IMG/VR virus record: IMGVR_UViG_3300042343_001539
Coordinates: 1 to 64,000 of that record
Length of the DNA stretch: 64,000 bases
DNA from: a virus
Reading direction: 5' to 3' (one strand)
The translations under genes and the position numbers were made by a program. This document shows, piece after piece, positions 1 through 49,018 of this stretch. How positions within the stretch are numbered: position 1 is the stretch's first letter; every line of letters starts with the position of its first letter. A model generated the notes under the pieces. The model was given only the letters and a program-made list of their open reading frames with translations. It made no database searches and was not told where the DNA came from.

Positions 1-1724
1 ATACGAATTATGGTCAGCCATTACAACAAAATTTAATTGATTTATTAACTAATTTTTATACCCAAACCGATCCTAAAACGAAAGCGGTTCCTGGTCAATT
101 AATATATGAAGGTGGTAGTACATTAACATTATGTACAAAAAGAAATGGGCTAGGTGTTTTAGAATTTAAAGAAATTCCATTAGTTGCTGCAAATAGACCG
201 GCAACTGGATCACCAATTATTCAAGGAACTCCGAAAATTGGTTTAACGGTAACTGTAGATACAACTCCTATCCAAGATCAAGACGGATTAGGAACATTTT
301 CATATCAATGGTATTCTGGTGGTGCAATTATAAATGGAGAAACATCGAATTCATTAATTTTAAATCCGGTTACTTTTAGTGCTGGTGATATGATTAGTGT
401 CCAAGTTAGTTTTTATGATGGCGGGAATACCTACGAACATATTTTAAGTAATTCAGTAGCGGTAATAGCTGCAGATCCAGTAGTTGCTGGAGTTCCGGTT
501 ACTCCACTTCCAGTTAAGTATTCTGCACCGCCGACAACAGATGTAGATTATTATGAATATACTGTTCCTGCCGGTATATCGAAAATAAATGTTGAAATTA
601 TTGGTGGTGGTGGCGGTGGTGGTGGAGCCGATCGTAAAATTGGTGGTAACGGCGGAGATGGTGCTAAAATCAATACGACCTTATTAGTCGGTAATGGTGA
701 TATTAATTCGGGTGATGTATTACGTATTTACGTTGGTTGTGGTGGAGCTGGTGGTGAGACCGGTATAACTAATAAATACGGACGGGATAGATTACCATTA
801 TATGGTGCCGCCGGTAAATTACCATCATTAGTCAATTTAACGACGTTATTGGCGGCTACTTTAGTTTCGGGCCCACCTATGGTAAAATATACGTATATGA
901 CAAAGCGCGGATTATTTTTACAAAATTATAGTTTTTGGGATGTAAATAAATCAGCTCCGCCGAATGGAACGACTAGAACTTGGGAATGGGATTTTACGGC
1001 CCCCCGACTTGGTAATTATGTAGCAACACTTGCCGGTGATGATTATTGTTATCTATACATAGATGGACTTTTACTTATCGCTAATGAAGCAGCTTTAAAT
1101 GTATCAGCCCAAGTTAATTTAACGAAAGGAACTCATAGATTAAAAGTAGTCGGTAAAAATGTTGGTGGTGGTGCAGCCTGCGTCGCGGTTGATATTAGTG
1201 AATTCAGTACTGGTTTTGCGTATGGTGGGACTGGCGGTCAAAGTGCCGCATCTGGCGTTGGTAATGCCGGAGCTGGGGGTGGCGCTTCTGCTATAGTAAA
1301 AACAACGGGAGCTGAAGTTTTAGTTGTTGCTGCTGGTGGTGGCGGTGGCGGCGGTGGTGATTATAATGGAGTTGGCGGTAATGCAACTAATTTAACGACA
1401 GCTGGAAGTTATGCGATCGACCCATCGGGTATTGTTAATATTAATCGTGCCGGCGGTGGGGGCGGTGGCGGTGGTTATGATTTAGTTTCCGGTACTAATT
1501 CAGGAAATGGTAAAGGTGGTGCCGCTAGTGGTCGTAATGTTGCTGGTCGTGGCGATATGCCTGGCGGAATCGGGGGTAATTCAGGTAAATCATTTGTTAA
1601 ATTATCTGCGGTTGAAGGTGGATCATTTACTAATATATTAGCTAGTAATAAAGGTTTAGCATCAACTGATTTAGTTCCTGGTGATGGTGGTTGTGGTTCA
1701 GTTCTTCTTACTCCGGTGGTCTAA
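1..1724 (+). CDS. Glycine-rich tail fibre/adhesin (5' end outside window)
   Basis: The reading frame is open from base 3 with no start, so the N-terminus lies upstream. The first visible residues (NYGQPLQQN...NFY...VPGQLIY) match the docking module at the N-termini of the fibres at 15225-17099 and 17118-18698. Next come an Ig-like domain (about 210-480) and a glycine-rich domain whose poly-Gly runs begin near 600 and recur near 1330 and 1460. A jelly-roll-like insert sits at about 880-1200. The same glycine-rich plus insert unit recurs in the giant fibre at 57340-58430. Poly-glycine adhesin tips that bind host surface receptors are known in T4-like phages (gp38 type); the receptor role here is inference. 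The internal ATG at 390 has no ribosome site and is not the start. The stop overlaps the next ATG by one base. Confidence 0.75.
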   Translation, partial: TNYGQPLQQNLIDLLTNFYTQTDPKTKAVPGQLIYEGGSTLTLCTKRNGLGVLEFKEIPLVAANRPATGSPIIQGTPKIGLTVTVDTTPIQDQDGLGTFSYQWYSGGAIINGETSNSLILNPVTFSAGDMISVQVSFYDGGNTYEHILSNSVAVIAADPVVAGVPVTPLPVKYSAPPTTDVDYYEYTVPAGISKINVEIIGGGGGGGGADRKIGGNGGDGAKINTTLLVGNGDINSGDVLRIYVGCGGAGGETGITNKYGRDRLPLYGAAGKLPSLVNLTTLLAATLVSGPPMVKYTYMTKRGLFLQNYSFWDVNKSAPPNGTTRTWEWDFTAPRLGNYVATLAGDDYCYLYIDGLLLIANEAALNVSAQVNLTKGTHRLKVVGKNVGGGAACVAVDISEFSTGFAYGGTGGQSAASGVGNAGAGGGASAIVKTTGAEVLVVAAGGGGGGGGDYNGVGGNATNLTTAGSYAIDPSGIVNINRAGGGGGGGGYDLVSGTNSGNGKGGAASGRNVAGRGDMPGGIGGNSGKSFVKLSAVEGGSFTNILASNKGLASTDLVPGDGGCGSVLLTPVV

Positions 1725-2293
1725 TGAAATTACTCGAAATAGTAGGTCCGAATATTGATATACCTAAAATTAAACAACTTTGTGCTCCTTATATCGAAGT
1801 TTTAAAACAAATAGATGGTGTCCCGCTATTTCGAGGTTATAATAAATCATTTAAACAAATACAAGGTTTTAACGTTGTCGTTCCTAGACCAAATAGAACA
1901 CCAACTGATACTCCTTTATTTTTACATAATGCATTAAATCAACAGTTTATTAAACACTTTAACTATCCATTCCGCAATGGTGTTTTTGCTTGCGGTAGTT
2001 ACGACGATGCTCATTATTACGGAACCGTTTACGCTGTATTTCCAGTTGGAAAATTAAATTATGTCTGGAGCCCGGAAATCATTGATTTATTTAAATATTT
2101 AGATCGATCTTATCATTTTGATACGATTGAAAATGATCAAGTTGCTATTGAACAAGCAGCAGAAGAAGTTATCGGTAAGTATATTGATAATGACTTAGAT
2201 AAAGCAATTCGAATGGGCCATGAAGTAATGTTAGCTAATAAATGTATTATGATTAAAGATTATGGGTTATATAAGGATGATATTTTATCATGA
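1724..2293 (+). CDS. ADP-ribosyltransferase-like protein, paralogue 1
   Basis: The protein has 189 residues. I chose the ATG at 1724 (overlapping the upstream stop as TAATG) over an upstream in-frame TTG at 1691, because it gives the N-terminus MKLLEIV shared with its neighbours. It is the first of three tandem paralogues sharing CAPYIEVLK, (L/I)(F/Y)RG, a central FRNG(V/I)F...A..YG block and a late HE(V/I)M block. The order R (R37 in PLFRG), aromatic/Ser-type strand, then Glu (E167 in HEVMLA) resembles the R-S-E layout of ADP-ribosyltransferases. That fold assignment is inference from motif order only. The N-terminus resembles a T4 capsid-targeting peptide, which suggests a packaged protein. 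Function unproven. Confidence 0.55.
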   Translation: MKLLEIVGPNIDIPKIKQLCAPYIEVLKQIDGVPLFRGYNKSFKQIQGFNVVVPRPNRTPTDTPLFLHNALNQQFIKHFNYPFRNGVFACGSYDDAHYYGTVYAVFPVGKLNYVWSPEIIDLFKYLDRSYHFDTIENDQVAIEQAAEEVIGKYIDNDLDKAIRMGHEVMLANKCIMIKDYGLYKDDILS

Positions 2294-2889
2294 GATTATA
2301 TGAAATATTAAATAGTGATGATTATTCGCATATTAGATCAATCCTTAAACAAGATTGTGCTCCTTATATTGAAGTTTTAAAACAAACTCGAGGTCATCCG
2401 TTATTTAGAGGTAGTGATAGTGGTAGACCACCTAAAGGCGAATTAACGAAAATTAGTCCTAAATTAGAACGGAAACCTAAAGATACGCCGATAGATATTC
2501 ATAACTTTATGAATAAACGATTCATTACGAAATTTGGATATCCGTTCCGCAATGGTATATTCGCATCGGGTGAACAACGAACCGCCGCTCATTACGGTTT
2601 GGTTAATATTTTATTTCCTATTGGTAAATTAAATTACATCTGGAGTGGTCAAGTTGATGATTTAGTTTATGTAATCGATCGAATTTATACTAAAGATGAG
2701 TTTGATGACGAGGATACAGTAAATCAAAATCCACAATTAGCTCAAGAATTTGAGAATTTAATCGATACTTATAAATCAGTTGATTTAGATCGATGTATTC
2801 TATCGAATCATGAAGTTATATTTGCAAATGATTGTTATCTGGTTTCATTATCTGATTATGAATATATTATAAAAGGATTGTTAACATGA
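2290..2889 (+). CDS. ADP-ribosyltransferase-like protein, paralogue 2
   Basis: The protein has 199 residues and overlaps the previous stop by four bases (ATGA), so the two genes are probably translationally coupled. It starts MRLYEIL. It carries the same blocks as its neighbours: PLFRG with R40, a KPKDT...H segment, FRNGIFASGE...AHYG, FPIGKLNYIWS, and SNHEVIFAND near residues 170-185. It is closest to the 1724 gene (CAPYIEVLKQ is identical) but is diverged throughout, so this is an old duplication. ADP-ribosyltransferase fold is suggested by R...aromatic/Ser...E order only. Membership in the tandem family is certain from sequence; enzymatic activity and target are unknown. Confidence 0.55.
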   Translation: MRLYEILNSDDYSHIRSILKQDCAPYIEVLKQTRGHPLFRGSDSGRPPKGELTKISPKLERKPKDTPIDIHNFMNKRFITKFGYPFRNGIFASGEQRTAAHYGLVNILFPIGKLNYIWSGQVDDLVYVIDRIYTKDEFDDEDTVNQNPQLAQEFENLIDTYKSVDLDRCILSNHEVIFANDCYLVSLSDYEYIIKGLLT

Positions 2890-3446
2890 GATTAGTCGAA
2901 TTATTAACCGATGATTCAAACCCAGCATCGTTAATTAAACGAGATTGTGGGCCATTTCTTAAAGCGTTTATAAATCTTAATGGAACTCCGATTTATAGAG
3001 GCGTTAACCAAGAGTTAACTAAAGAAATCGTTAAAATATCACCAAGAACTAATAATAGACGACCATCAGATACGATTATACAAATTCATCAATATTTAAA
3101 TGATAAATTTATGGAGAAATTTGGATTTCCGTTTCGTAATGGTATTTTTGTCTGTGGTAATAAACTCGCAACTGAAGTTTATGGTACTCCGGTTGTTGTT
3201 TTTCCTATCGGAGATTTAAAATTTGCTTGGTCGAAAGAATGGTTTGATTTATTTGAATTATTAGTTGATCATCATGATATGAATAATGCTGATACTAAGC
3301 GTATAATAGATGATGCGTTTGATACATATAGAACTGATAAAATACAAATTGCTATACGTTCCGGCCATGAAATAATGTTCGCAAATGATTGTTACTTAAT
3401 TAGCGAAAAAACTTATAATCGAATTAAAACCGAGCTGCAATCATGA
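2886..3446 (+). CDS. ADP-ribosyltransferase-like protein, paralogue 3
   Basis: The protein has 186 residues and again overlaps the upstream stop by ATGA. It starts MRLVELL, identical over seven residues to the kinase that follows. Conserved blocks: PIYRG (R38), RRPSDT...H, FRNGIFVCG...VYG, FPIGDLKFAWS, and SGHEIMFAND near residue 165. The YRG form of the first block is the commoner version in bacterial ADP-ribosyltransferases. It forms a four-gene run (1724-4150) with 4-base overlaps. No separate promoter is visible, so expression probably follows the late fibre gene upstream. The paralogue relation is seen directly; the fold call is inference. Confidence 0.55.
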   Translation: MRLVELLTDDSNPASLIKRDCGPFLKAFINLNGTPIYRGVNQELTKEIVKISPRTNNRRPSDTIIQIHQYLNDKFMEKFGFPFRNGIFVCGNKLATEVYGTPVVVFPIGDLKFAWSKEWFDLFELLVDHHDMNNADTKRIIDDAFDTYRTDKIQIAIRSGHEIMFANDCYLISEKTYNRIKTELQS

Positions 3447-4150
3447 GATTAGTTGAATTATTAAATGAAGGTATTAATGATAAAGGTATTTTTAAAGCTT
3501 TATTTCTAGGTGGGATTCCAGCTAGCGGTAAAAGTACGATCGTTAATCAAATTAGACGAGTTACCGGCGTAATGCCTAAAGTTCTTAACTACGATCAATT
3601 TTATGAATATCTTAGTAAAAAACATGATATACCAATATCAACTAAAGAACAAATAGATCAACCGGAAGCTAAAGGTATTAGAAGAAGAGCAAAGCATTTA
3701 ACCACCGCTCAATTAAAATTATATTTAGCTGGTATGTTACCAATTATCGTAGATACTACAGCATCAGATGTCGCTCAATTAGTCGAACGCATGTCAGTAA
3801 TGAGAGAACACGGTTATGACTTAATGATGATCTATAAAAAAATAGATTTAGAACAATCATTAGAAAGAGCTAAAACCCGAGATCGATATGTAAGTGATGA
3901 CCATATCCGCAAAATGCATCATCATGAGGATTACCGCCTTTATGAAATTGGTAAGTATATGAGAATTAAAAAACATCAATTTATTTTATTAAAATCAGAT
4001 AGTGCACTGGACGATCATTTATCTAGAATTGATAATTTTTTTAATAGTCCGGTGCAGAATCCAATCGGTAAACAATTGATGAATGATTTATTAGATAGTG
4101 GCGAAAAAACAATTCAACCATTACCTAATAAAGTTGATAAATGGTATTAA
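3443..4150 (+). CDS. P-loop kinase of the zeta-toxin/AAA_33 type with capsid-type N-terminus
   Basis: The protein has 235 residues. After the leader MRLVELLNEG there is a Walker A motif GGIPASGKST (residues 23-32), then a DxT-type element in IIVDTTASD and an arginine-rich lid segment near residues 150-170 (RAKTRDRYVSDDHIRKM). This layout fits small P-loop kinases of the zeta-toxin/polynucleotide-kinase class; the substrate cannot be told. It starts inside the stop of the third ART-like gene (ATGA). The first seven residues equal those of that gene, supporting a common sorting signal rather than common ancestry of the enzymes. The end meets the convergent gene at 4147. Confidence 0.6.
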   Translation: MRLVELLNEGINDKGIFKALFLGGIPASGKSTIVNQIRRVTGVMPKVLNYDQFYEYLSKKHDIPISTKEQIDQPEAKGIRRRAKHLTTAQLKLYLAGMLPIIVDTTASDVAQLVERMSVMREHGYDLMMIYKKIDLEQSLERAKTRDRYVSDDHIRKMHHHEDYRLYEIGKYMRIKKHQFILLKSDSALDDHLSRIDNFFNSPVQNPIGKQLMNDLLDSGEKTIQPLPNKVDKWY

Positions 4151-4544: not shown

Positions 4545-5672
4545 ATGAATATGCACGAAAAAGTTTTATGGTTACAAACTGAATTTCCTGAACTATGGCA
4601 AGCAATGGATGACGCTAATCATAACTTTAGTATCCATGACCTGAACCCATATCATTTAGAAGGTAGAGTTAGTACGCATACATTAATGGTTGCGAAAATA
4701 GCTGAAATTTACAATGAAAATGAAATTATTCAATGGGCTGCATTATTACACGACTTAGGTAAACCATTAGCTAGAATAGAAATTCCTGAAAAACGTAGAG
4801 CTCGATTCGTTAATCATGAAGGTATCAGTATGTTCTTAGCTATTGATATCTTAAATAAAACTGATCTATCAACTGATGATAAAATTCAAGTCTTAAAAGT
4901 AATTGCTGGTCATAGTTTATTATTTGACTTATTAATTATTAAAGATGAAAATACGATAGATATTAATGATGATGTTTATAAATTATTTAAAGGTCAGAAA
5001 ACATTTTTAGATTTAGTTAGTAGAATTACTCGATGTGATACATTAGGTCGCTTTGCTAAAGGAGCTGATGCTCGAACTCATTTAGGTGATTCTATTGTTC
5101 CAGCTATTCAAAATATTTTACCTAAATTTATTGATCAAGATAGTTTAGATTATAACGAAAAAGATAAAGCTTTAATTTTATTATGTGGATTACCTGGTAG
5201 TGGTAAATCATCATACGTTAATTTATTAAACGATGATTACTTTATTATTTCTCGCGATTCGATTTTAGAAGCAATGGCAACTAAAATGGGTATTACCTAT
5301 AATGATGTATTTGCGTTACATTTAGTTGATCATAAAATTAAAGAAGAAATTGACATCAATCTAAATATGATGATAAATGATTCTAAAAAAAGTGGTAAAC
5401 ATATTGTTATTGATATGACTAACTTAAGTAAAAAAGCAAGACGTCGATGGACTAATCGATATGATAAAAGTTATAAAAAAGAATGTATTGTTTTTTTAAC
5501 TGGTCAAGCAGATTTGATTGATCGGGATAATAATAGAAGTAAAACCGGAAAAACTATTGGAGCCGATGTTTACTTAAGCATGATGAAATCATTTTCATTA
5601 CCGATGTTTAGTGATGGATTTGATAACATCGATTATATTTTACATGAAGGAACTTATAATAAAAATGGATAA
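4545..5672 (+). CDS. HD-Pnk: HD phosphoesterase fused to 5'-OH polynucleotide kinase
   Basis: The protein has 375 residues. The ATG at 4545 follows GAGGAG by seven bases; an upstream TTG in frame is less likely. Residues about 30-190 are an HD phosphohydrolase domain (H in VSTHTLM, the HDLGKP pair near residue 70, then NHEG and AGHS histidines). Residues about 210-375 are a T4 Pnkp-type kinase: Walker A GLPGSGKSS, SRD, DMTN, and a lid DRDNNRSKTGK that matches the arginine segment of T4 Pnkp. This is the HD-Pnk architecture known from Runella, where the HD domain removes 2',3'-phosphates and the kinase phosphorylates the 5'-OH end. T4 instead uses a kinase with a HAD phosphatase. It prepares broken RNA ends for the ligase at 6020. 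Confidence 0.82.
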   Translation: MNMHEKVLWLQTEFPELWQAMDDANHNFSIHDLNPYHLEGRVSTHTLMVAKIAEIYNENEIIQWAALLHDLGKPLARIEIPEKRRARFVNHEGISMFLAIDILNKTDLSTDDKIQVLKVIAGHSLLFDLLIIKDENTIDINDDVYKLFKGQKTFLDLVSRITRCDTLGRFAKGADARTHLGDSIVPAIQNILPKFIDQDSLDYNEKDKALILLCGLPGSGKSSYVNLLNDDYFIISRDSILEAMATKMGITYNDVFALHLVDHKIKEEIDINLNMMINDSKKSGKHIVIDMTNLSKKARRRWTNRYDKSYKKECIVFLTGQADLIDRDNNRSKTGKTIGADVYLSMMKSFSLPMFSDGFDNIDYILHEGTYNKNG

Positions 5673-5949
5673 AATTCAATTACCTCGAGATGAACTCATT
5701 AGTTTTATTGATAATTTAACTGATTTATATAGCGATGAATTAAAAGGTAGGGCTAAGCAATGGGTTGATCGATACCCGGATGCTATAGTTCATGAAGTTA
5801 ACAAGACTGGTGACGGCTGTATTTGTATCGAGTATAAATTAGATGGATTAGATAATCAATTTGTTGTTTTTGAAACAAAACGAATTATTTTATGGAATTT
5901 AGTCGATAATGTTCGTAAAAATTATCGCCGCGTTAAATATCTAACTTAA
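5665..5949 (+). CDS. Small protein embedded in the RNA-repair cassette
   Basis: The protein has 94 residues. The ATG at 5665 lies inside the last codons of HD-Pnk (8-base overlap), so the two are probably translated together. Family not recognised. The sequence is hydrophilic and mixed alpha/beta in look (helix-like LPRDELISFIDNLTDLYSDE, then CICIEYKLDG and FVVFETKRI strands). No catalytic motif is evident. Its position between the end-healing enzyme and the ligase suggests a role in the same process, such as an adaptor or specificity factor; that is inference from position only. Confidence 0.6.
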   Translation: MDKIQLPRDELISFIDNLTDLYSDELKGRAKQWVDRYPDAIVHEVNKTGDGCICIEYKLDGLDNQFVVFETKRIILWNLVDNVRKNYRRVKYLT

Positions 5950-5952
5950 TAG

Positions 5953-5981
5953 TAGACATCACCACCCCATTGTAGTATAAT
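5953..5981 (+). promoter_or_regulatory. Early sigma-70-like promoter for RNA ligase
   Basis: -35 TAGACA (5953-5958), 17-bp spacer, -10 TATAAT (5976-5981) followed by ATTATTTTTT. The -10 and downstream segment match those at 9892, 10877 and 44147. Confidence 0.7.
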
Positions 5982-6019
5982 ATTATTTTTTAGCAATCAA
6001 TTACATTAAAAGGTGCATT

Positions 6020-7144
6020 ATGAGTATTTTTAAAACTATTAATCATATAGATGATCTATTACCATACATTAAAGATAAACCAGAAATTAATGTTGTAACT
6101 CATGCCAATGGCTGTAAAGTTATTAGTTATATGTTTCAAGATAGTAAAACATTCGCTGGTGATTATGAAATGTGGTTACGCGAATGTCGAGGTATTACTT
6201 TCTTGCCTGATGGTTCGGTTGGTGCTAGACCATTTCATAAGTTTTTTAATGTAAATGAAAAAGTTAATACAAAAGAAGAAAATATCGACTGGAGTTCTAT
6301 CATTAATATCGCAGATAAACGTGATGGGTCTATGATTACTCCAGTTTGGTTTCCTGAGACTAATACTTTAGTTTATAAAACTAAAAAATCATTTGATAAT
6401 GATATTAGCCAAACGGTTAATGCATTATTTGGTGAAAATACGGTTGAATACGAGTTATGTATTTTTTTAACATCATTAAATTGCACTCCTATATTTGAAT
6501 ATACCGCTCCATCAAATCGTATCGTTTTAAAATATAATCAACCTAGTTTGACGTTATTAGCTATTCGACATAATAATTCCGGTGTTTATTGGACTTATGA
6601 AACAATGCAGGCTTTATTATCGACTCAATATCCAGAAGCTAAATTAGTTGATTCCTTCGCAACTGAGTTATCTAATAATGATTGGTTATCTAAATTAAAA
6701 GAAAAGTTAACGGTTGATCAGTTATTTGAAGGCTATGTATTTGAATCAATTAATGGCGAACGATATAAATGGAAATCAGTTTGGTATGAATTATTGCATC
6801 GCAATGTAACATTTCCGACATATCAAAGTATTGCGGAAATGGTTATCGATGAAAAAGTTGATGACTTTAAAGCGTATTGTGTTAGTATCGAAGATAATGA
6901 GTTATACGATAAAATCGAAGTTATCGAAAGTCAAGTATTTGAAATATTAAAACGAATTTCTCAAACGGTTGAGTTAAATGTAAGCGAAAATAAAGAATTA
7001 GAAGTTAAAGATTTTTGTTTAAAATTTAAAGATGATCCGTTATTTCATTTAATGATTGCGTTTTATAAAAATAAAGAAGTTAATTATATCGATTATTTTA
7101 GAAAATATGTATTAGAAGAACAATTTTCCCGCGATTCAGTTTAA
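6020..7144 (+). CDS. rnlA: T4 RNA ligase 1 family (Rnl1)
   Basis: The protein has 374 residues, the same length as T4 Rnl1. The nucleotidyltransferase motifs are in order: motif I KRDGS with the adenylated lysine K100; ECRGI upstream; motif IIIa region FEYTAPSNRIV; motif IV EGYVFE; motif V KWKS. The C-terminal part (about 250-374) corresponds to the Rnl1-specific helical domain that contacts tRNA. It seals 5'-phosphate to 3'-OH RNA ends using ATP. In T4 this repairs tRNA cut by host anticodon nucleases such as PrrC. AAAAGGTGC precedes the ATG, and it has its own early promoter. It lies between HD-Pnk and an RlaP-type gene, a repair context. Confidence 0.92.
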   Translation: MSIFKTINHIDDLLPYIKDKPEINVVTHANGCKVISYMFQDSKTFAGDYEMWLRECRGITFLPDGSVGARPFHKFFNVNEKVNTKEENIDWSSIINIADKRDGSMITPVWFPETNTLVYKTKKSFDNDISQTVNALFGENTVEYELCIFLTSLNCTPIFEYTAPSNRIVLKYNQPSLTLLAIRHNNSGVYWTYETMQALLSTQYPEAKLVDSFATELSNNDWLSKLKEKLTVDQLFEGYVFESINGERYKWKSVWYELLHRNVTFPTYQSIAEMVIDEKVDDFKAYCVSIEDNELYDKIEVIESQVFEILKRISQTVELNVSENKELEVKDFCLKFKDDPLFHLMIAFYKNKEVNYIDYFRKYVLEEQFSRDSV

Positions 7145-7158
7145 TAACGAGATTTAAT

Positions 7159-8088
7159 ATGAATATTGTAGTTGAAACTTTATTTGGTAGCCATTTATAC
7201 GGGCTAGATACGCCTAATTCCGATAAAGATTATAAAGGTATAGTATTACCAACCTCTACCCAAATTCTCTTAGGAAAGTCGAATTTTCACGTCGATAAGA
7301 GTACCAGTACTGGTCATGGTAAAAATACAAAAGATGATATTGATAGGACTTTTTATTCGTTAAGTTATTTTATCGATCTGGCTAGTAAAGGTGAAACTGT
7401 CGCATTAGATATGTTGCATGGTAGTCCAGATAAACTAATTCAATCTAGTCCGATTTGGGACTTTTTAGTTGCTAATCGTCATAAATTTTATACTAAATCG
7501 ATGAAGTCTTATATTGGCTATGTTCGCAAACAAGCAGCCAAGTATGGAATTAAAGGTACTCGTATTAGCGAACTCGAAAAGGTTATTGCATTTTTAGAGA
7601 CATTTCCAAGTGATGTTCCAATTGGTACATTAAACTTTCCGGATAATGAATTTGGCAAATGGGTCGAATATAAAAGCAATAACTATTATGAATTCGCTGG
7701 GAGTAAATTTCAAGATAATTTAAAGATTCATTATATGTTAGATACTCTTAAAAAAATCTATGCTAATTATGGCGAACGATCTAAATTAGCAAAAGAAAAC
7801 TTAGGAGTTGATTGGAAAGCTGTTTCTCATTGTTTACGAGCCGGTTATCAAGCAAGAGATATTTTTACCAAAGGTTATTTTGAATATCCATTAGATGAAA
7901 CTAAATTTTTAATGGATGTTAAATCGGGTAAATTAGATTTCGTATCTGAAGTTGAACCAGAAATCGATAAAATTACAAAAGAAGCATTAGCATTATCTGA
8001 TGCCTCGACATTACCGGATGAAGTTGATAGAGAGTTTTGGAATAATTATATCGAATCGATTCATAAAGATATCGTAATAAACGAATAA
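7159..8088 (+). CDS. RlaP-type (RNA-ligase-associated) nucleotidyltransferase
   Basis: The protein has 309 residues. The N-terminus has the polymerase-beta-type motif GSHLYGLDTPNSDKDYKG (about residues 10-27), with the G-S and paired acidic residues of minimal nucleotidyltransferases. The next conserved part, around DDIDRTFYSLSYFIDLASKG, and the long helical C-terminus fit the RlaP family (predicted nucleotidyltransferases found next to RNA ligases). The likely role is adding or modifying nucleotides at damaged RNA ends before sealing; this is family-level inference. It starts 14 bases after the ligase stop in the same transcription unit and ends before a strong terminator. Confidence 0.8.
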   Translation: MNIVVETLFGSHLYGLDTPNSDKDYKGIVLPTSTQILLGKSNFHVDKSTSTGHGKNTKDDIDRTFYSLSYFIDLASKGETVALDMLHGSPDKLIQSSPIWDFLVANRHKFYTKSMKSYIGYVRKQAAKYGIKGTRISELEKVIAFLETFPSDVPIGTLNFPDNEFGKWVEYKSNNYYEFAGSKFQDNLKIHYMLDTLKKIYANYGERSKLAKENLGVDWKAVSHCLRAGYQARDIFTKGYFEYPLDETKFLMDVKSGKLDFVSEVEPEIDKITKEALALSDASTLPDEVDREFWNNYIESIHKDIVINE

Positions 8089-8106: not shown

Positions 8107-8133
8107 AAAGGGCGTTTAAAACGCCCTTTTTAT
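8107..8133. terminator. Rho-independent terminator, bidirectional
   Basis: AAAGGGCGTTT pairs with AAACGCCCTTT, followed by a T-tract. It lies between the convergent genes ending at 8088 and 8133. Confidence 0.9.
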
Positions 8134-9146
8134 TATTTTGATTTAAATAGTTCTATATTATGTTTTAATACGTCATCATTCCATTTAAATTTAATCATAT
8201 GTTTTCCATAATCAACTAATGCTTCTGATGTTCCAGTTAAAATAGTATTTTTATAATCTAATAATTGAGTATTTAATTTTCTAAAATCGACAACTCCATT
8301 TAACCATATTAATAATAATAATTTAATATCTGATTCGCTTCTTCCATCTAAATAATTAAATAATTTATTTTGATCAGCTTTTGTTTCTAAATGTTGTTGA
8401 ATTTGTTCGTGCATATCGCCATCTGAGGCTAATAAAACGCTACGAACTTTAGTTGATTTATTATCTAATTCTCTAATTACATCACCAATAGAATTAATAT
8501 CTGCAGTTTTAGTTTTTAATTTTTTATAATCTTTATTCTTAATCGTATCTAATAATAAAATACTTTCTGGCTTTAATAAAAATACTTGAGCCGCATCACC
8601 TTTATGAGCAGTTCCAGTTTTATCTTTAAACCCATTCATGTTTAAGGCTCTTAATATTTTAGTCCAATGTGGTTTATAATTATTTGGGCTTAATTCATTT
8701 GCTATATGTTTTGTTAATCGCCATAATTGTTCAAATGGTTTTTTATAACTTAAACGTTCTAATTCTTGATCTAAATTAACTAAATGAGAATATCTACTTT
8801 TTAATACGTGAGCATCACGGTCAATATTTTTATAAGAATCAATTATTGTAATTGGAAATGAATATTTAAATACGTGAATATAAGGTCTTTTATTTGCGTA
8901 AGGATAATTATCAAAATTTTTAGTTTTTTCTACGTTAAAATCTGCCCATGTTTGTTTTAATGGATATGCATATAAACCTACCGGTACATCATCATTCGAT
9001 TTCTGCACTTTACCAAATCTAGATGATTTAGAAAATTTAATGTAAACATCTGGGTCATTTTTATAAGGTAATAACTGGTCATATGCCGATGCATTCTGAT
9101 CCAATTCCGGGTTTTGTACTTCATCGAGTAATTGTTGTAATCTCAT
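8133..9146 (-). CDS. Virion-associated-type protein with GLYAYPL motif
   Basis: The protein has 337 residues and starts MRLQQLLDEVQ, the capsid-type N-terminus seen on several proteins here. A recognisable block VYIKFSKSS...VPVGLYAYPL...PYIHVFKYS (residues 34-95) recurs in uncharacterised T4-like phage proteins. A GTAHKGDAAQVFLL segment lies near residue 190. No enzyme family can be assigned; an ART-like or papain-like fold is only a guess. The late promoter at 9172-9181 lies just upstream, so it is expressed with virion genes although surrounded by early genes. It is transcribed against its neighbours. Confidence 0.6.
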   Translation of the reverse strand: MRLQQLLDEVQNPELDQNASAYDQLLPYKNDPDVYIKFSKSSRFGKVQKSNDDVPVGLYAYPLKQTWADFNVEKTKNFDNYPYANKRPYIHVFKYSFPITIIDSYKNIDRDAHVLKSRYSHLVNLDQELERLSYKKPFEQLWRLTKHIANELSPNNYKPHWTKILRALNMNGFKDKTGTAHKGDAAQVFLLKPESILLLDTIKNKDYKKLKTKTADINSIGDVIRELDNKSTKVRSVLLASDGDMHEQIQQHLETKADQNKLFNYLDGRSESDIKLLLLIWLNGVVDFRKLNTQLLDYKNTILTGTSEALVDYGKHMIKFKWNDDVLKHNIELFKSK

Positions 9147-27213: not shown

Positions 27214-28341
27214 ATGATTTTTTCAGAATTTTTAAGAGAAGATGGGGAGGCGGGTTGTGTATCAGCTGGTAATGTTGCTGGAACCCGAGGTTCGCTATTC
27301 GGTATGATAACTCGAGATGGTAGTGCCGCCAAAAAGGGCAAAAAAAGAAGATTAAAAACATTTTTTGAATCAGTTGTTAAATCTGATGAGTTCAGTGCTG
27401 AAGATGTATTATCAAAATTAAATGGCGCGGAAAAAGAAAATAAATTAAAAGATAACTCTATTGCTTATGGTATCGAAGACGCCGAAGGTAATATTACTAA
27501 AGTTTATATCGATAAAGAACAAGACGAAGCTTTTAAAAGAGCATTAGGTGAGTATTTAGATGATGATCAAACTTTAGATGTTGCTGAAATTTTATTTAAT
27601 TTACGCAATTCATTTAATATCTTATTCGTCGAATGGCCTAAATTACCAGAAGATGAAGAAGTTGATAATAAATTAGATAACCCAGAAGGTGCACCAGAAG
27701 GTGACGAAGGTGAAATGCCTCCCGAGGGTGAACCTGGAACAGAAGGTGATATTAAACCAGATGATAATACTCCTCAAGAAATTGGTCAACCAGAAGATAG
27801 CTCAAGTTTATTATTAAAAGTTATTGATATGTTAAAAGCAGACGCTGATGCTAAAACGGCGGAGTCTAATGCGAAAGCTAAAGAAGCGGAAGCTGAGCAA
27901 GCGAAATTATCTATTCAAATGTCTAATATTAAAGTTAAGAATGAAGAAGATATGTTGCGGGCAGAAGAACATTTTAAAAAACAAAACGATGATAAAAAAG
28001 AACAAGAACGTGTTGCTAAATTAGCAAAATACAGAAGTGAAATAAACAATAATGCTACTTACGAGGGAGCCATGTCAATTTTAGATTTTATGCATTCTGA
28101 TTTAAAAGATATTAATGAAGATATTAATGATGATGAATTACGTATTCAAACTCAAATCGCAGATTTAAATGTTCGTAAAAATCGTGCTATGAAAGTTTAT
28201 GATGATCAAGTTAAAAGATTACAAAATCAACTTTTAAATATTAATAAGCAACAACAATCAGCTGGCGGAAGACCACAAGGTAATCCACAACAACAGCAAG
28301 GTCAACCACAACAACAACCGCAGGGACAACCACCCCGTTAA
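27214..28341 (+). CDS. Structural protein with packaged-type N-terminus and Gln-rich tail
   Basis: The protein has 375 residues, with AAGGTG before the ATG. It begins MIFSEFLRED, then GCVSAGNVAGTRGSLFGMITRDG, a block I recall near the start of structural proteins in T4-like environmental phages. Then come a globular part (~45-130), a Pro/Glu/Gly-rich acidic linker (~145-195), a long coiled coil (~200-350) and a Gln/Pro-rich tail (QQQQGQPQQQPQGQ). It is probably a virion protein; the exact position is unknown. The N-terminal F-S-E-F-L resembles T4 internal-protein leaders. It is convergent with the tape-measure-like gene, overlapping by four bases. Confidence 0.6.
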   Translation: MIFSEFLREDGEAGCVSAGNVAGTRGSLFGMITRDGSAAKKGKKRRLKTFFESVVKSDEFSAEDVLSKLNGAEKENKLKDNSIAYGIEDAEGNITKVYIDKEQDEAFKRALGEYLDDDQTLDVAEILFNLRNSFNILFVEWPKLPEDEEVDNKLDNPEGAPEGDEGEMPPEGEPGTEGDIKPDDNTPQEIGQPEDSSSLLLKVIDMLKADADAKTAESNAKAKEAEAEQAKLSIQMSNIKVKNEEDMLRAEEHFKKQNDDKKEQERVAKLAKYRSEINNNATYEGAMSILDFMHSDLKDINEDINDDELRIQTQIADLNVRKNRAMKVYDDQVKRLQNQLLNINKQQQSAGGRPQGNPQQQQGQPQQQPQGQPPR

Positions 28342-31964: not shown

Positions 31965-32300
31965 ATGACTGAAAAATTAGCTGAAATGCTTGATGCAGTA
32001 TTAAAAAAAGATGATGCATTAGCTGAAAGTGCATTCCATGATTATTTGACTGGTAAATTCAAACAAATCATCGAAGAAGATGAAGACGAAGACGAAGACA
32101 AATATTCAGATGAAGAAGGCGAATCATCAGAAGAAGATGATGAAGATGCTGAATATTCAGATGAAGATGAAGATAAAGAAGAAGATGAAGATGACGATGA
32201 GAATTATGAAGATCGTGAATATTCAGATGAAGATGATTTTGATGCAGACAACGAAGACGACGATTCAATCGAAGACGAAGACGAAGAATGCATGAGATAA
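31965..32300 (+). CDS. 67: Prohead core protein gp67, acidic
   Basis: The protein has 111 residues. A short helical head (MTEKLAEMLDAVLKKDDALAESAFHDYL) is followed by an almost purely Asp/Glu tail, the same build as T4 gp67 (80 residues, acidic tail). Three copies of (K/E)YSDE(E/D) punctuate the tail and reflect a repeated DNA unit AATATTCAGATGAAG near 32102, 32151 and 32218. gp67 is part of the scaffold and is cut to small peptides by gp21. TAGGAG precedes the ATG. It shares the region with gp21, as in T4, where 67, 68 and 21 are neighbours. No gp68 was recognised. Confidence 0.8.
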   Translation: MTEKLAEMLDAVLKKDDALAESAFHDYLTGKFKQIIEEDEDEDEDKYSDEEGESSEEDDEDAEYSDEDEDKEEDEDDDENYEDREYSDEDDFDADNEDDDSIEDEDEECMR

Positions 32301-33132: not shown

Positions 33133-33777
33133 TTATTTTTTTACAAATAAACTACTATCCAACCATTTTTTAATTTCAGTCACTAAATATTTTTGAGCTG
33201 ATTGATCTTCTTGTACTGATTCAGCTAGTGTTAAAATACGACGACCTTTAACTGATTCATCTAATGATTCATAAATTGATGTTGGATATGCGCTTGCGCA
33301 GCTTGGTGTTCCAACTATATCAACCGTAATTAAATTAAATCCACTTACTATACCTTGCTCGTTTACTTCTCCTGCACCACGGCTACTTACGCCAGGTTTA
33401 ACACCACTTTCAGTAATTAAAACTTTAGCGATTTGGCCCATTGGAGTATTTAGAATTTTAGCTTTACCATAAACATTATTACCTTCAACTCGTAATTCTT
33501 GTATTACATGGCTTACTCGATCGCTAGCTACTTGTAATGATGGTGGGTGATCTAATTCACCCCAAACACCGCCGGTTTGTTTAATTTGTTCAGTTAATCT
33601 AGCAACGGCATTTTGCATTTCAGTAATTGGATAAATTCTACCGTTTCTGTTTTTTGTTTCTGCTTGCATAAAGCAACCAGATAAGTATAAATTTTTACCT
33701 TCGGTATCTACGACTGATTCTTGGATCAAATTACCCTGATCGTAGGTCAAAGTCTCAACTAAAAATTGTGTTTTCAT
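33133..33777 (-). CDS. 21: Prohead core protease gp21
   Basis: The protein has 214 residues with the ATG at 33777; a second ATG 12 bases upstream (33789) is possible. MKTQFLVET aligns with the MNEPQLLIET start of T4 gp21. The catalytic pattern of the assemblin-like serine protease is visible: His in GELDHPP (near residue 77) and Ser in PGVSSRG (near residue 130), plus FMQAETKNRNGRIYP. It cuts scaffold and capsid proteins after (L/I)xE during head maturation. Matching sites are seen in gp23 (MLTE, residues 38-41) and in several leaders in this window. The late box at 33813-33821 is upstream. Confidence 0.9.
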   Translation of the reverse strand: MKTQFLVETLTYDQGNLIQESVVDTEGKNLYLSGCFMQAETKNRNGRIYPITEMQNAVARLTEQIKQTGGVWGELDHPPSLQVASDRVSHVIQELRVEGNNVYGKAKILNTPMGQIAKVLITESGVKPGVSSRGAGEVNEQGIVSGFNLITVDIVGTPSCASAYPTSIYESLDESVKGRRILTLAESVQEDQSAQKYLVTEIKKWLDSSLFVKK

Positions 33778-39428: not shown

Positions 39429-39436
39429 TATAAATA
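39429..39436 (+). promoter_or_regulatory. Late promoter box for the 39463 unit
   Basis: Exact TATAAATA, 26 bases before the ATG. The 39200-39462 gap otherwise shows only the minus-strand promoter. Confidence 0.75.
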
Positions 39437-39462: not shown

Positions 39463-40110
39463 ATGAAACTTAATGAATTATTATTTGAAAACCCGCAATT
39501 GATTGACCCCATTGATTCGAAAAAATTTGTTAATGATCACGACCATAATCATAAATTATACGATACTTTGATTATGCAATCGCATCAATTAATTAAGCAG
39601 ATCAATGATCATATTATATTAGTTCGAATCGATGCGAAACGAGGTAAAGATTTTAACTTCCAATATGTTGGATTAGATAATAAAAACGAACAAGTCTGTT
39701 TTTTATCTAGATGTGTGGTTAAAACCGATAAAATTTTAGGTAGATATGTTTTCCAAAATTTTTTATGGGTTAGCCCACAACATAAAAAAGAATTCCATGG
39801 TTGGCCTAGTAAATTAGTATTCGAGCAGTTATTACCTAAATACGGAACTATTACCACTGATGAATTTCATACACCGAAGGGTATGAATTATTGGGCGAAA
39901 TTAGTTAAACAAACTCATACCGAACATGATGGTGCATTTTATGTTTATCATTTTAATAAAAAACAAGAACAAATTCATTTGGTAAAAACAGTTCATCATT
40001 TAATTGAATTACAAAAAGAACATAAGATTTGGGATCACGGTCCAAGCGGAGCTCATCAATTAGTAGTTATATCTACTAAAAAATTACATCAGAAAAAACA
40101 CAGTGGTTAA
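39463..40110 (+). CDS. GNAT-like protein with capsid-type N-terminus
   Basis: The protein has 215 residues and starts MKLNELLFEN. The middle FLWVSPQHKKEFHGWPSKLVFEQLLPKYGTITTDEFHTPKGMNYWAKLVKQ follows the order of GNAT acetyltransferase motifs as seen in phage proteins (post-beta4 loop, helix, beta5, then T-x-x-G-x-x-x-W-x-x-L), but the classical acetyl-CoA Q/RxxGxG/A loop is weak. The C-terminal 50 residues are His/Lys rich. It has its own exact late box. With the N-terminal motif this suggests a packaged protein. Acetyltransferase activity is inference. Confidence 0.5.
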   Translation: MKLNELLFENPQLIDPIDSKKFVNDHDHNHKLYDTLIMQSHQLIKQINDHIILVRIDAKRGKDFNFQYVGLDNKNEQVCFLSRCVVKTDKILGRYVFQNFLWVSPQHKKEFHGWPSKLVFEQLLPKYGTITTDEFHTPKGMNYWAKLVKQTHTEHDGAFYVYHFNKKQEQIHLVKTVHHLIELQKEHKIWDHGPSGAHQLVVISTKKLHQKKHSG

Positions 40111-45420: not shown

Positions 45421-45489
45421 ATGAAATTATATCATTTACTTATTATTTTAATAGGTAAATTATATACTTTTAATGGAGACTTACTTTGA
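45421..45489 (+). CDS. Possible 22-residue leader peptide before the sirtuin
   Basis: An ATG at 45421 gives MKLYHLLIILIGKLYTFNGD plus LL; its stop TGA overlaps the TTG start of the sirtuin (TTGA). No clear ribosome site of its own. It may couple translation to the sirtuin or be chance. Confidence 0.3.
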   Translation: MKLYHLLIILIGKLYTFNGDLL

Positions 45490-46622: not shown

Positions 46623-47558
46623 ATGAATGAAATTCTTAAAAAATTACTTGCAGAATCAGGTATCCTGACAGATGAAAGTAAACAAGAATTAGAAGAAGCA
46701 TTTTCTGCTTCATTAACTGCTGCGGTCGACGCTGCAGTAGCAGAAGCTAAAGCTGAAACTATTGCTCAAACAAAAATCGAATTGCATGAACAATATACAA
46801 CTCAACGTGAGATGTTAATTGAAGCAATTGATAGTAAAGTTAATGATTTCTTATTGGCGGAAATGAAAGTGTTGCGCAATGACATTAAAGCATTTCGCGA
46901 TCTAGAAGCAGAAAAAATTGTTGAAATTGCTAAAGAAAAGAAAGCATTAGGCAAACAATTGAAAGAAGAAATGGTTCAGTTAGTAAAACAGCTTGACATT
47001 TTCTTAGAAACTCGTTTACATGAAGAATTTAAATCATTAAAAGCTGATATTCATGAAGCGAAAAAATTAGACTTCGGTCGTAAAGTATTTGAAGCTTTTG
47101 CTCACGAATACAATAAACATTATGTTAATCCAAGCGAAACTGAAGCTCAATTAGTTGAAGCTAAAACAAAATTGGATAAATTGTTTAAAAATTATAAAAA
47201 CGTTAAGAAAGAAAAAGAAGAATTGTATCGTAAAGTTAAATTAGAATCAGTTCTTGCTCCTCTTTCTGGCTATCAAAAAGATTTGATGGAATCTATTCTT
47301 TCTAGTGTAGCCACTGATAAATTAGAAGAAGCATATAAATTATATGTTAAAAAAGTAATTAAAGAATCCATTGATCAATCGACTGGGTCAAAATCGGCTC
47401 AACTTGACGAATCAGCTGCTCCAGTAGATGTAACAACTACTGAAACTATTATTATTGATGGTGATACGCAAGGCCAAGAACAACCTGCTGCAACTACTGT
47501 TGTAAGCGAAGCCGTCGATATTAAAGCACAAATTCTTAGATTAGCCGGACTCGGTTGA
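46623..47558 (+). CDS. 22: Prohead scaffold (core) protein gp22
   Basis: The protein has 311 residues. The ATG at 46623 follows GGGAG by nine bases; an in-frame ATG at 46584 has no ribosome site. It is almost wholly helical and coiled coil, Glu/Lys/Ala rich, directly upstream of gp23, as in T4 gp22. The head is MNEILKKLLAESGIL with LxE-type sites; the end is DIKAQILRLAGLG. gp22 forms the inner scaffold of the prohead and is degraded by gp21. The C-terminal ILRLAGL recurs at the start of the 33875 protein, a candidate docking motif. It is followed by the gp23 late box. Confidence 0.85.
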   Translation: MNEILKKLLAESGILTDESKQELEEAFSASLTAAVDAAVAEAKAETIAQTKIELHEQYTTQREMLIEAIDSKVNDFLLAEMKVLRNDIKAFRDLEAEKIVEIAKEKKALGKQLKEEMVQLVKQLDIFLETRLHEEFKSLKADIHEAKKLDFGRKVFEAFAHEYNKHYVNPSETEAQLVEAKTKLDKLFKNYKNVKKEKEELYRKVKLESVLAPLSGYQKDLMESILSSVATDKLEEAYKLYVKKVIKESIDQSTGSKSAQLDESAAPVDVTTTETIIIDGDTQGQEQPAATTVVSEAVDIKAQILRLAGLG

Positions 47559-47617: not shown

Positions 47618-49018
47618 ATGATTACAGAATTAAACGAAAACTGGGGTGATCTTAAAAGCAAATTGCTTGAAGGTTTACCAGAAAACAAACGCAAAATGGT
47701 TGCACCTTTATTAGAAAACCAAAAACAAATGCTGACGGAAACAGCTGCTGATGGTTCTACAAGTGCTTCTGCAATTGCAGGCTTACGTAAAATTATGATT
47801 CCAATGATTCGCCGGGTTATTCCTAATGCGATTGCAACTGAGTTAGTTGGTGTTCAACCAATGACCGGTCCAGTTGGATTAGTTTATTCTATGCGTTTAA
47901 AATATCAAGATTCAATTGCGGCACCTAGTGCATTTAGTGATATCGATGGTGGTATTGGTGCAATTGATACAGCAACTGACTCAGAAGCGTTCGGTAACGT
48001 TAATTTGATCCGTCGTTTTTATTCTGGTCAAATTGGCGGTGCTCAAACTGCTGGTACTGGTGGTTTTGGTGGTGGTACTTTCTCAAGCGCTACTGCACCA
48101 TCTGGTACAGGTTGGGGTTCAGCTTTAGATGCAACTGCCGGTGCTACTATCACTGGTTTAGGCGCAACTGGTCCGTTATACGGCGGTGGTGGTACTTACT
48201 TAGAAGGTTCAGGTGGTCGTCGTTTTGGTATGGAAATCGTATCACAAGCGGTTGAAGCTAACTCACGTAAATTACAAGCTAGCTGGACTGTTGAAGCAAT
48301 GCAAGATTTGTCTTCGCAACACGGTTTAGATATCGAAAACGAAATGACACAAGCTATGTCAGCTGAAATCGTTCAAGAGATTGATAATGAAATCATCACT
48401 GACTTATTGTCATTAGCTGGTACTATTTCAACATTTGATGGTTCAGTTCCTGCAGCAGCTGGTTACTACAAACCAACATTCGTCGGTGATCGTTTAGCTA
48501 ACTTAGGCGTTCAAATCAACTATGTAGCGAATGAGATTGGTCGTAGAACACGTCGTAATTCAGCAAACTGGATCGTTGTTTCTCCAATGATCGTTTCTGT
48601 ATTGCAAACAGCTTCTAAATCAGTTTTTGCACCTGCAGTTGAAGGTTCATTCCAAGGTCCAAACAATACAAAATTGGTTGGTACTTTAAATGGTCAAATC
48701 AAAGTTTACAGCTACTTGTGGAACAACGTTCGTTCAACTGATGCATTAGCATCTGGTTTATATTCACAAGGTACAGGCGATGATGCTATCTTAGTTGGTT
48801 ATAAAGGTGGTAATGGCGAAACTGATACAGGTTATTTCTACTGTCCATATATTCCATTGATGTCTTCTGGTATCATTATGAATCCATCAACAACTCAACC
48901 AATGATTTCATTGATGACACGTTATGGTAAAGCATCATTTACTGATCGTCGTAGTTCATTAGCTAACAGCTCTGACTACTATGGTAAATTGACTGTTACT
49001 AACTTAAGCTTACAATAA
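47618..49018 (+). CDS. 23: Major capsid protein gp23
   Basis: The protein has 466 residues. The HK97-fold capsid protein of T4 type: MIRRVIPNAIATELVGVQPMTGPVGLVYSMR is the signature block. Residues 1-41 are a propeptide rich in Leu/Glu/Lys. The expected gp21 cut is after MLTE (E41), leaving TAADG... as the new N-terminus, like T4 LTE/A. A Gly-rich insertion at about 140-190 (TAGTGGFGGGTF...YGGGGTYLEG) matches the region of insertion differences in this family. AGGAG precedes the ATG by ten bases. C-ending codons (AAC, TTC) and CGT are more common than in neighbours, as in highly expressed genes. Confidence 0.97.
   Translation: MITELNENWGDLKSKLLEGLPENKRKMVAPLLENQKQMLTETAADGSTSASAIAGLRKIMIPMIRRVIPNAIATELVGVQPMTGPVGLVYSMRLKYQDSIAAPSAFSDIDGGIGAIDTATDSEAFGNVNLIRRFYSGQIGGAQTAGTGGFGGGTFSSATAPSGTGWGSALDATAGATITGLGATGPLYGGGGTYLEGSGGRRFGMEIVSQAVEANSRKLQASWTVEAMQDLSSQHGLDIENEMTQAMSAEIVQEIDNEIITDLLSLAGTISTFDGSVPAAAGYYKPTFVGDRLANLGVQINYVANEIGRRTRRNSANWIVVSPMIVSVLQTASKSVFAPAVEGSFQGPNNTKLVGTLNGQIKVYSYLWNNVRSTDALASGLYSQGTGDDAILVGYKGGNGETDTGYFYCPYIPLMSSGIIMNPSTTQPMISLMTRYGKASFTDRRSSLANSSDYYGKLTVTNLSLQ

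What the first reader, a model, noticed from the sequence alone, without database searches (positions are those of the whole stretch)
1724..4150. A shared M(R/K)LxELL N-terminus marks a set of unrelated enzymes, suggesting a packaged-and-injected effector set
The starts MKLLEIV, MRLYEIL, MRLVELL and MRLVELLNE (1724, 2290, 2886, 3443) recur at MRLQQLLDE (9146, minus), MKLNELLFE (39463), MLLSEVV (40137), MIFSEFL (27214) and MELDRIL (33875). Their bodies are unrelated: ART-like, kinase, GNAT-like, PRTase-like, WCTA domain. T4 internal head proteins use a short N-terminal capsid-targeting sequence (as I recall, Alt starts MELITELFDE and IPIII MKTYQEFIAEA) cut by gp21 after (L/I)xE. The motif here contains LxE, and several carriers have late promoters. 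The injected-effector reading is inference.
Basis: partly seen in the sequence, partly recalled or inferred. Interest (0 to 1): 0.85.

Follow-up and report, generated by a model that had tools for sequence, protein, structure and literature searches.

The report
Phage capsid-packaging tag on unrelated enzymes
Several unrelated proteins of this uncultured T4-like giant phage begin with the same short address label, a dialect of the tag that T4 uses to load proteins into its head, so the phage probably packs these enzymes beside its DNA and injects them at the start of infection.

Summary
The shared N-terminus is real. M[KR]Lx[EQD] plus two hydrophobic residues starts 6 of 77 proteins of this 107-kb record (0.09 expected; 0 of 455 internal Met). 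Best reading: a lineage-specific dialect of the T4 capsid-targeting sequence (CTS). Orthologs of the tagged kinase (3443) start MKTFKEFLNE|G or MISFKQFLKE|G before the same body; T4 internal proteins start MKTYQEFIAE|A (IPII/IPIII) and MKTFKEF (IPI). A profile trained only on relatives ranks, of 84 genes, 3443, 8133(-), the gp22-position scaffold, 27214, 39463 and the gp21 protease as the top six. Within a genome, the kinase tag resembles the tags of a non-homologous family more than those of kinases elsewhere. In Agrobacterium phage Atu_ph07, 19 of 755 N-termini carry the motif (0.07 expected); 12 lie in a gene cluster where published mass spectrometry found 29 virion proteins. Corrections: 1724, 2290 and 2886 are paralogs; their ART label is unproven and their tags lack the Glu of a gp21 site; 1724, 33875 and 40137 are not supported carriers; only 39463 has a consensus late promoter. 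Packaging is well supported by inference; cleavage and injection were not tested.

The parts
3443..4150 (+). Tagged P-loop kinase; tag MRLVELLNE (3443-3469), predicted gp21-type cut before G10 of GINDKGIFKA
   Evidence: AAA_33 E 1.3e-10, above Pfam cut-off; PSSM rank 1 of 84; 20+ orthologs whose prefix ends in E before [GS](I/V/L)(N/Y)D
2886..3446 (+). Effector-candidate paralog 3; tag MRLVELLTD, targeting half present, Asp at the P1 position
   Evidence: Targeting-half PSSM rank 6, full PSSM rank 12; AlphaFold pLDDT 92.9 with the first 10 residues at 54
2290..2889 (+). Effector-candidate paralog 2; tag MRLYEILNS, no Glu at P1
   Evidence: Targeting-half PSSM rank 2, full PSSM rank 7; 37-43% identical to the other two
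1724..2293 (+). Effector-candidate paralog 1; start MKLLEIV is degenerate as a tag
   Evidence: Same family; PSSM rank 64 and 62: tag not supported here
8133..9146 (-). Tagged 337-aa protein of unknown function; tag MRLQQLLDE (9120-9146)
   Evidence: PSSM rank 2; homolog in L107 starts MKPTFIEFLIEA
39463..40110 (+). Tagged 215-aa protein of unknown function (PHROG 1349); tag MKLNELLFE
   Evidence: PSSM rank 5; homologs start MLLSELLLE (L041) and, more weakly, MRLIDLLEH (Atu_ph07); phrog_1349 E 6e-12
39429..39436 (+). T4-type late promoter -10 TATAAATA for the 39463 carrier
   Evidence: 26 bp upstream of the ATG; the motif occurs 4 times in the window against 27 expected
27214..28341 (+). Tagged coiled-coil-like 375-aa protein; tag MIFSEFLRE
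   Evidence: PSSM rank 4, targeting half rank 3
33133..33777 (-). gp21 prohead protease (Peptidase_S77), the expected processing enzyme; its own N-terminus MKTQFLVE|T also fits
   Evidence: PF03420 E 6e-28; phrog_207 head maturation protease E 4e-59; PSSM rank 6
46623..47558 (+). gp22-position prohead scaffold, N-terminus MNEILKKLLAE|S
   Evidence: Lies directly upstream of the major capsid gene; PSSM rank 3; the gp22 name is inferred from position
47618..49018 (+). gp23 major capsid precursor; likely gp21 cut LTE|T
   Evidence: phrog_138 major head protein E 4e-90; up to 56% identical to Xanthomonas phage XacN1; cut site inferred by analogy to T4

Best explanation
The shared N-terminus is a capsid-targeting sequence of the T4 IPII/IPIII/Alt type in the dialect of this phage: M-[RK]-L-x-x-L-L-x-E. 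It should bind the growing prohead core (gp22-like scaffold) through hydrophobic residues equivalent to T4 IPIII residues 4 and 7. It would carry its cargo into the prohead. In 3443, 8133, 39463 and 27214 it would be cut off by the phage's own S77 protease after the LxE at residues 7-9. In 2290 and 2886 it would target without an IPIII-type cut. The cargo would leave the head with the DNA at infection. Shown here: the motif and its statistics, the presence of gp21, near-canonical T4 tags on orthologs, co-variation of tags within genomes, and conservation at the protein level. From published data: a homologous tagged cluster lies inside a virion-protein gene cluster of Atu_ph07, and one CBB protein with this type of N-terminus was detected in virions. 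Inferred: packaging, cleavage and injection in this phage.
For: Motif 6/77 vs 0.09 expected. Kinase orthologs: prefix ends in E immediately before the conserved body start in every case where the start could be read (L023 excluded), with dialects such as MKTFKEFLNE|GINDKGIFKA, matching T4 IPI MKTFKEF and IPII/IPIII MKTYQEFIAE|A. Held-out PSSM: top six of 84 genes are four carriers plus the gp22-position scaffold and gp21; T4 IPIII scores 12.8. Dialect test in 14 genomes: kinase vs non-homologous family, same genome 28.1, other genomes 18.8, permutation p 5e-5; kinase vs kinase across genomes 20.4. Atu_ph07: 19/755 vs 0.07 expected, 12 of them among CDS 43-63, inside CDS 31-76, where 29 proteins were identified in virions (PMC6102473). 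CBB: MRFSQITE|D = CBB_299, gp22-position CBB_256 and MNKLQKILTE = CBB_210 were mass-spectrometry detected (PMC5259590). Synonymous codons vary, so selection is on the peptide. First 10 residues of 2886 model at pLDDT 54 against 88-98 elsewhere. T4 review: CTS targeting depends on residues 4 and 7, processing on 8 and 10 (PMC9026906).
Against: No virion data exist for this phage. Individual Atu_ph07 detections (Supplementary Table S5) could not be read, so detection of the tagged proteins there is inferred from position. The three paralogs lack the P1 Glu. The enrichment in CBB as a whole is weak (7 hits against 3 expected for one pattern). The control comparison also shows a small same-genome excess (11.7 vs 10.2, p 0.002). 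Orthologs of 8133 and 39463 are few.
Confidence: 0.82

Rival explanations
1. The tag targets proteins to the prohead core, but the cargo serves head assembly only and is not injected as effectors.
For: The profile also picks up gp22-position and gp21, which are assembly proteins. 27214 looks like a coiled-coil rather than an enzyme. T4 IPIII affects head assembly.
Against: The kinase has a recognised enzymatic domain. In relatives, tags sit on cREC, NT5C, poly(A)-polymerase/CCA-type and GNAT domains, which are unlikely scaffolds. T4 Alt and IPI act in the host.
Confidence: 0.11
2. The N-termini are similar because the genes are paralogs or share an exchanged N-terminal domain with another role, such as a membrane or polymerase anchor.
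For: 1724, 2290 and 2886 are paralogs, and 2886 and 3443 share 20 of 21 opening nucleotides.
Against: Bodies of 3443, 8133, 27214 and 39463 are unrelated to them and to each other. Tag length is only 8-10 residues. In relatives, 52 of 2302 N-termini from other families exceed a 0.1% threshold (2.3 expected).
Confidence: 0.05
3. The similarity is a nucleotide-level translation-start or regulatory signal, not a peptide signal.
For: A-rich starts; TTA is frequent in this AT-rich genome.
Against: In Atu_ph07 the same residues are written with different codons: AGA/CGT, TTA/CTT/TTG, CAA/CAG, ACT/ACC/ACA. Non-synonymous dialect changes keep the chemistry.
Confidence: 0.02

Closest known systems
T4 internal proteins IPI, IPII, IPIII and their capsid-targeting sequence
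   Same: Short N-terminal peptide with hydrophobic targeting positions and a hydrophobic-x-E end; unrelated bodies behind one tag; S77 protease and T4-type capsid in the same phage
   Different: Dialect is one residue shorter (MR-LVELLNE vs MKTYQEFIAE); one cargo is a recognisable enzyme; processing and packaging not yet observed
T4 Alt (MELITELFDE)
   Same: Enzyme cargo with a tag that aligns with MRLVELLNE; also carries an LxE-type site near residues 4-6
   Different: No sequence or fold match of the window family to ADP-ribosyltransferases was obtained, so an Alt-like activity is unproven
Agrobacterium phage Atu_ph07 gp53-gp63
   Same: Homologous family plus kinase in tandem, all starting M[KR][WL]x[QD]LxE, inside a virion-protein gene cluster
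   Different: 11 tandem genes against 4, a Trp-containing dialect, and a kinase fused behind a family domain with an internal VTE|G junction
Polyvalent and MuF-fused packaged effectors of phages (Iyer, Burroughs, Aravind)
   Same: Same proposed outcome: enzymes delivered with the DNA (PMC9503650)
   Different: Those use fusion to head proteins or large multidomain proteins; here the address is an 8-10 residue cleavable tag
Head and inner-body proteins of phiKZ/SPN3US-type giant phages
   Same: Proteins processed by a prohead protease; some injected
   Different: Different phage lineage and protease; no comparison of their propeptides was made here

Membership tests
T4-type CTS-bearing internal head protein | N-terminal targeting peptide with hydrophobic residues at positions equivalent to IPIII 4 and 7 | tested here: met
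   Targeting-half profile: 8133, 2290, 27214, 3443, 2886, 39463 in the top 7 of 84; not met for 1724, 33875, 40137
T4-type CTS-bearing internal head protein | gp21-type site (L/I)xE at the end of the tag | tested here: met
   Met for 3443 (LNE), 8133 (LDE), 39463 (LFE), 27214 (LRE); not met at this position for 1724, 2290, 2886, 40137. In IPIII an Asp at position 10 blocks processing but not targeting
T4-type CTS-bearing internal head protein | Same phage encodes an S77 prohead protease and T4-type capsid | tested here: met
   PF03420 E 6e-28; major head protein E 4e-90
T4-type CTS-bearing internal head protein | Protein present in the mature virion | tested here: inconclusive
   No virion data for this phage; homologous cluster in Atu_ph07 lies within CDS 31-76 with 29 detected proteins; individual list not readable
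T4-type CTS-bearing internal head protein | Tag removed by gp21 during maturation | not testable with these tools
   Needs N-terminal peptide mapping
T4-type CTS-bearing internal head protein | Ejected into the host and active there | not testable with these tools
   Inference from T4 Alt and IPI
T4-type CTS-bearing internal head protein | Late expression | tested here: inconclusive
   TATAAATA directly upstream only for 39463
ADP-ribosyltransferase superfamily (for 1724, 2290, 2886) | Sequence or fold match to a known ART | tested here: not met
   No credible Pfam hit in 36 members, no PDB sequence match to an ART, no Foldseek PDB match above probability 0.02
ADP-ribosyltransferase superfamily (for 1724, 2290, 2886) | Conserved R...S...E catalytic order | tested here: inconclusive
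   R38-G39, R84, D121 and E162 are (nearly) invariant; the order resembles an ART but a Ser motif is not invariant
P-loop kinase AAA_33 (for 3443) | Family profile over curated cut-off and Walker A | tested here: met
   42.2 bits against cut-off 27; GGIPASGKST in the sequence

The most novel reading that the evidence does not exclude
T4-superfamily phages, including giant phages of the Rak2/Atu_ph07 branch, run an open cargo system: each phage has its own tag dialect, matched to its own scaffold, and any gene captured behind that tag is delivered into the next host. Tag exchange between unrelated genes would explain why a kinase tag resembles its genomic neighbours' tags more than its orthologs' tags. 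Relatives carry up to about a dozen tagged genes in a run, including RNA- and nucleotide-processing enzymes.
Probability: 0.5. Interest if true: 0.82.

Novelty: new variant of a known kind. Interest (0 to 1): 0.7.

Why it matters
T4 internal proteins are the textbook case of enzymes and inhibitors injected with phage DNA, but outside T4 and close relatives the injected set is mostly unknown. If the tag can be read from sequence, the injected cargo of uncultured and giant T4-like phages can be predicted gene by gene. The dialects give a testable prediction: a tag should work with its own scaffold better than with a foreign one. The cargo is a set of candidates for counter-defence against host systems that act before the first phage gene is expressed. 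It would also provide new addresses for loading proteins into phage heads in laboratory strains.

Tried and rejected
Chance: rejected by column shuffles and internal-Met controls. Nucleotide-level signal: rejected by codon variation. Carriers 33875 (MELDRIL) and 40137 (MLLSEVV): rejected on the held-out profile (ranks 66 and 70), although orthologs of 40137 keep an LxE near the start (MLLNE, ILSE), so an Alt-type site cannot be excluded. ART identity: three independent searches gave nothing; only homologs in other phages were found by fold. Late promoters for the 1724-3443 operon: no consensus found. Isolate relatives by DNA: none. More relatives of 39463 and 8133 in viral contigs: only near-identical copies. 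CBB as a whole-proteome test: too few hits for a strong test. The Sinorhizobium phage AP-J-162 paper gave no list that names the tagged proteins.
Full report
WHAT THE RECORD IS. The window is 1-64000 of a 107,037-bp IMG/VR virus record. It encodes a T4-type major capsid protein (phrog_138, E 4e-90; 56% identical at best to Xanthomonas phage XacN1, then 45% to Rak2/CBB/GAP32-type giant phages), an S77 prohead protease (PF03420, E 6e-28), and a scaffold-position gene directly upstream of the capsid gene. It is thus a fragment of a T4-superfamily phage, probably a giant one.

THE OBSERVATION. All nine N-termini are there. M[KR]L.[EQD][LIVF][LIVF] starts 6 of 77 distinct N-termini; shuffling columns among the proteins gives 0.09 on average and never more than 2 in 2000 trials; none of 455 internal methionines is followed by it. 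Two statements need correction. First, 1724, 2290 and 2886 are one paralogous family (34-43% identity). Second, the list mixes real and doubtful carriers, as shown next.

HELD-OUT TEST. A profile was trained on 57 N-termini of two families (the 3443 kinase and the 1724/2290/2886 family) taken only from other contigs, then applied to the 84 genes of this record. The top six were 3443 MRLVELLNE|G, 8133(-) MRLQQLLDE|V, the scaffold-position gene MNEILKKLLAE|S, 27214 MIFSEFLRE|D, 39463 MKLNELLFE|N and the protease MKTQFLVE|T. Two of the six are prohead-core proteins that nobody asked for, which is what a core-targeting signal predicts. T4 IPIII scores 12.8, above all of them. 1724, 33875 and 40137 rank 64, 66 and 70. 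2290 and 2886 score only when the cleavage residue is left out (ranks 2 and 6).

LINK TO T4. The T4 sequences, read from the T4 record, are IPII and IPIII MKTYQEFIAE|A, IPI MKTFKEF and Alt MELITELFDE. The kinase of 3443 has orthologs in more than 20 contigs; wherever the start could be read, a prefix ending in E stands immediately before the conserved body: MKTFKEFLNE|GINDKGIFKA (L011), MISFKQFLKE|GINDKGIFKA (L009), MITFKQFLDE|SINDKGIFKA (L025), MRLENYLNE|GINDKGIFKA (L024), MRLVELLNE|GINDKGIFKA here. The body stays; the tag changes from T4-like to the dialect of this phage. The tag of this phage aligns with IPIII with one residue missing: MKTYQEFIAE / MR-LVELLNE. A review of T4 reports that targeting rests on IPIII residues 4 and 7, processing on 8 and 10, and that Asp at position 10 blocks processing but not targeting (PMC9026906). 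The equivalents here are L3, L6, L7 and E9; 2886 has Asp at the last position. So 2886 may be packaged uncut; that is an inference.

TAGS CO-VARY WITHIN GENOMES. In 14 genomes that hold both the kinase and the other family, the kinase prefix scores 28.1 against that family's N-termini in the same genome and 18.8 against those of other genomes (permutation p 5e-5). Kinase prefixes of different genomes score 20.4 against each other. The control with all other genes gives 11.7 and 10.2. A tag therefore resembles unrelated proteins of its own phage more than orthologs elsewhere. This is expected if all tags of a phage fit one scaffold.

BREADTH. In relatives, 52 of 2302 N-termini from other families exceed a threshold at which 2.3 are expected. 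Tagged cargo there includes cREC (PF20274), NT5C-type nucleotidase, poly(A)-polymerase/CCA-type nucleotidyltransferase and GNAT domains. Contigs L014, L024 and L016 have 9 of 33, 9 of 34 and 6 of 18 genes above the threshold, many of them adjacent.

VIRION EVIDENCE FROM RELATIVES. Atu_ph07 carries the homologous cluster at 39.5-50.6 kb: 11 tandem genes that start MRWEQLTE, MKWNDLNE, MRWHQLNE and similar. In the whole genome 19 of 755 N-termini match M[KR][WLFY].[QEDN]L.E against 0.07 expected. Counting features from the start of the record gives gp53-gp63 for the cluster; the count agrees with published gp18 (tRNA nucleotidyltransferase) and gp70 (primase-helicase). Attai et al. found 131 virion proteins by ESI-MS/MS, 29 of them in CDS 31-76 (PMC6102473). 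The 12 tagged genes of CDS 43-63 lie inside that range. If 29 of 46 detections fell at random, missing all 11 of gp53-gp63 would have a probability near 1e-6 (hand calculation from C(17,11)/C(46,11)). This is an argument from position; the individual list is in a supplement that could not be read. In CBB, with a published table of 55 detected proteins (PMC5259590), the only two M[KR]-aromatic/aliphatic motif starts are CBB_299 (MRFSQITE, detected) and CBB_321 (MRYNQLQE, annotated structural, not in the table); CBB_210 (MNKLQKILTE) and the scaffold-position CBB_256 (MSKLDKFLNE) were also detected. Five other CBB starts that matched the looser pattern were not shown to be virion proteins, so CBB alone is weak support.

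NATURE OF THE SIGNAL. Codons differ between tags in Atu_ph07, so the peptide is conserved. In the AlphaFold model of 2886 (pLDDT 92.9) the first ten residues have pLDDT 54 and the rest 88-98: the tag is outside the fold.

CARGO FUNCTION. 3443 is a P-loop kinase (AAA_33; weaker PHROG match to polynucleotide kinase). The 2886 family has (nearly) invariant R38, G39, R58, R84, P107, D121 and E162 and an order of motifs that resembles an ART, but no library supports this; fold matches are only to uncharacterised phage proteins, among them Atu_ph07. 8133, 27214 and 39463 remain unknown. Function is therefore proposed only as early host take-over or counter-defence, by analogy to Alt and IPI.

EXPRESSION. 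TATAAATA occurs 4 times in the window against 27 expected; three of the four lie upstream of late-type genes, including 39463 and the scaffold gene.

VERDICT. The packaging-tag reading is well supported (0.82). Cleavage is likely for four carriers and doubtful for the three paralogs. Injection and function are inferences from T4. The principle is known from T4, and the T4 review itself suggests that the CTS lets T4-like phages take up various proteins. What is added here is the dialect, its co-variation within genomes, its spread to giant phages and to enzyme cargo, and a readable cargo list.

Noticed in passing
4545-8088 (+): Directly downstream of the tagged operon stand untagged RNA-repair-like genes: an HD plus kinase protein (phrog_6931), an RNA ligase (phrog_562) and a nucleotidyltransferase (phrog_388).
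   Followed up: no
L115:14485-16821 (Atu_ph07 gp53): A 778-aa protein joins a 2886-family domain and the kinase with VTE|GVNDKHIFKA at the junction, as if a prohead protease could separate them; NLTELFDT and NLNELFDT recur further on.
   Followed up: partly
33875-35119 and 47500-47558: The start of 33875 (ILQLAGLLSE) resembles the C-terminus of the scaffold-position protein (ILRLAGLG); orthologs of 33875 keep QLAG[LM]LTE. Possibly a second core-binding motif.
   Followed up: no
31965-32300 (+): A very acidic 111-aa protein that looks like T4 gp67 by composition and an N-terminal LAE; no PHROG match.
   Followed up: no
whole window: TATAAATA is depleted (4 against 27 expected) and placed upstream of late genes, as for a T4-type late promoter.
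   Followed up: partly
66615-83807 of the record (L002:2615-19807): A single 5730-aa open frame of tail-fibre-like repeats.
   Followed up: no
L009, L014, L024, L026: Runs of short neighbouring genes that all start MKTYKEFL or MRLxxYLxE, most without any known domain.
   Followed up: partly
45486-46151 (+): A Sir2-family gene (phrog_2162, E 1e-43) in the late region, without a tag.
   Followed up: no
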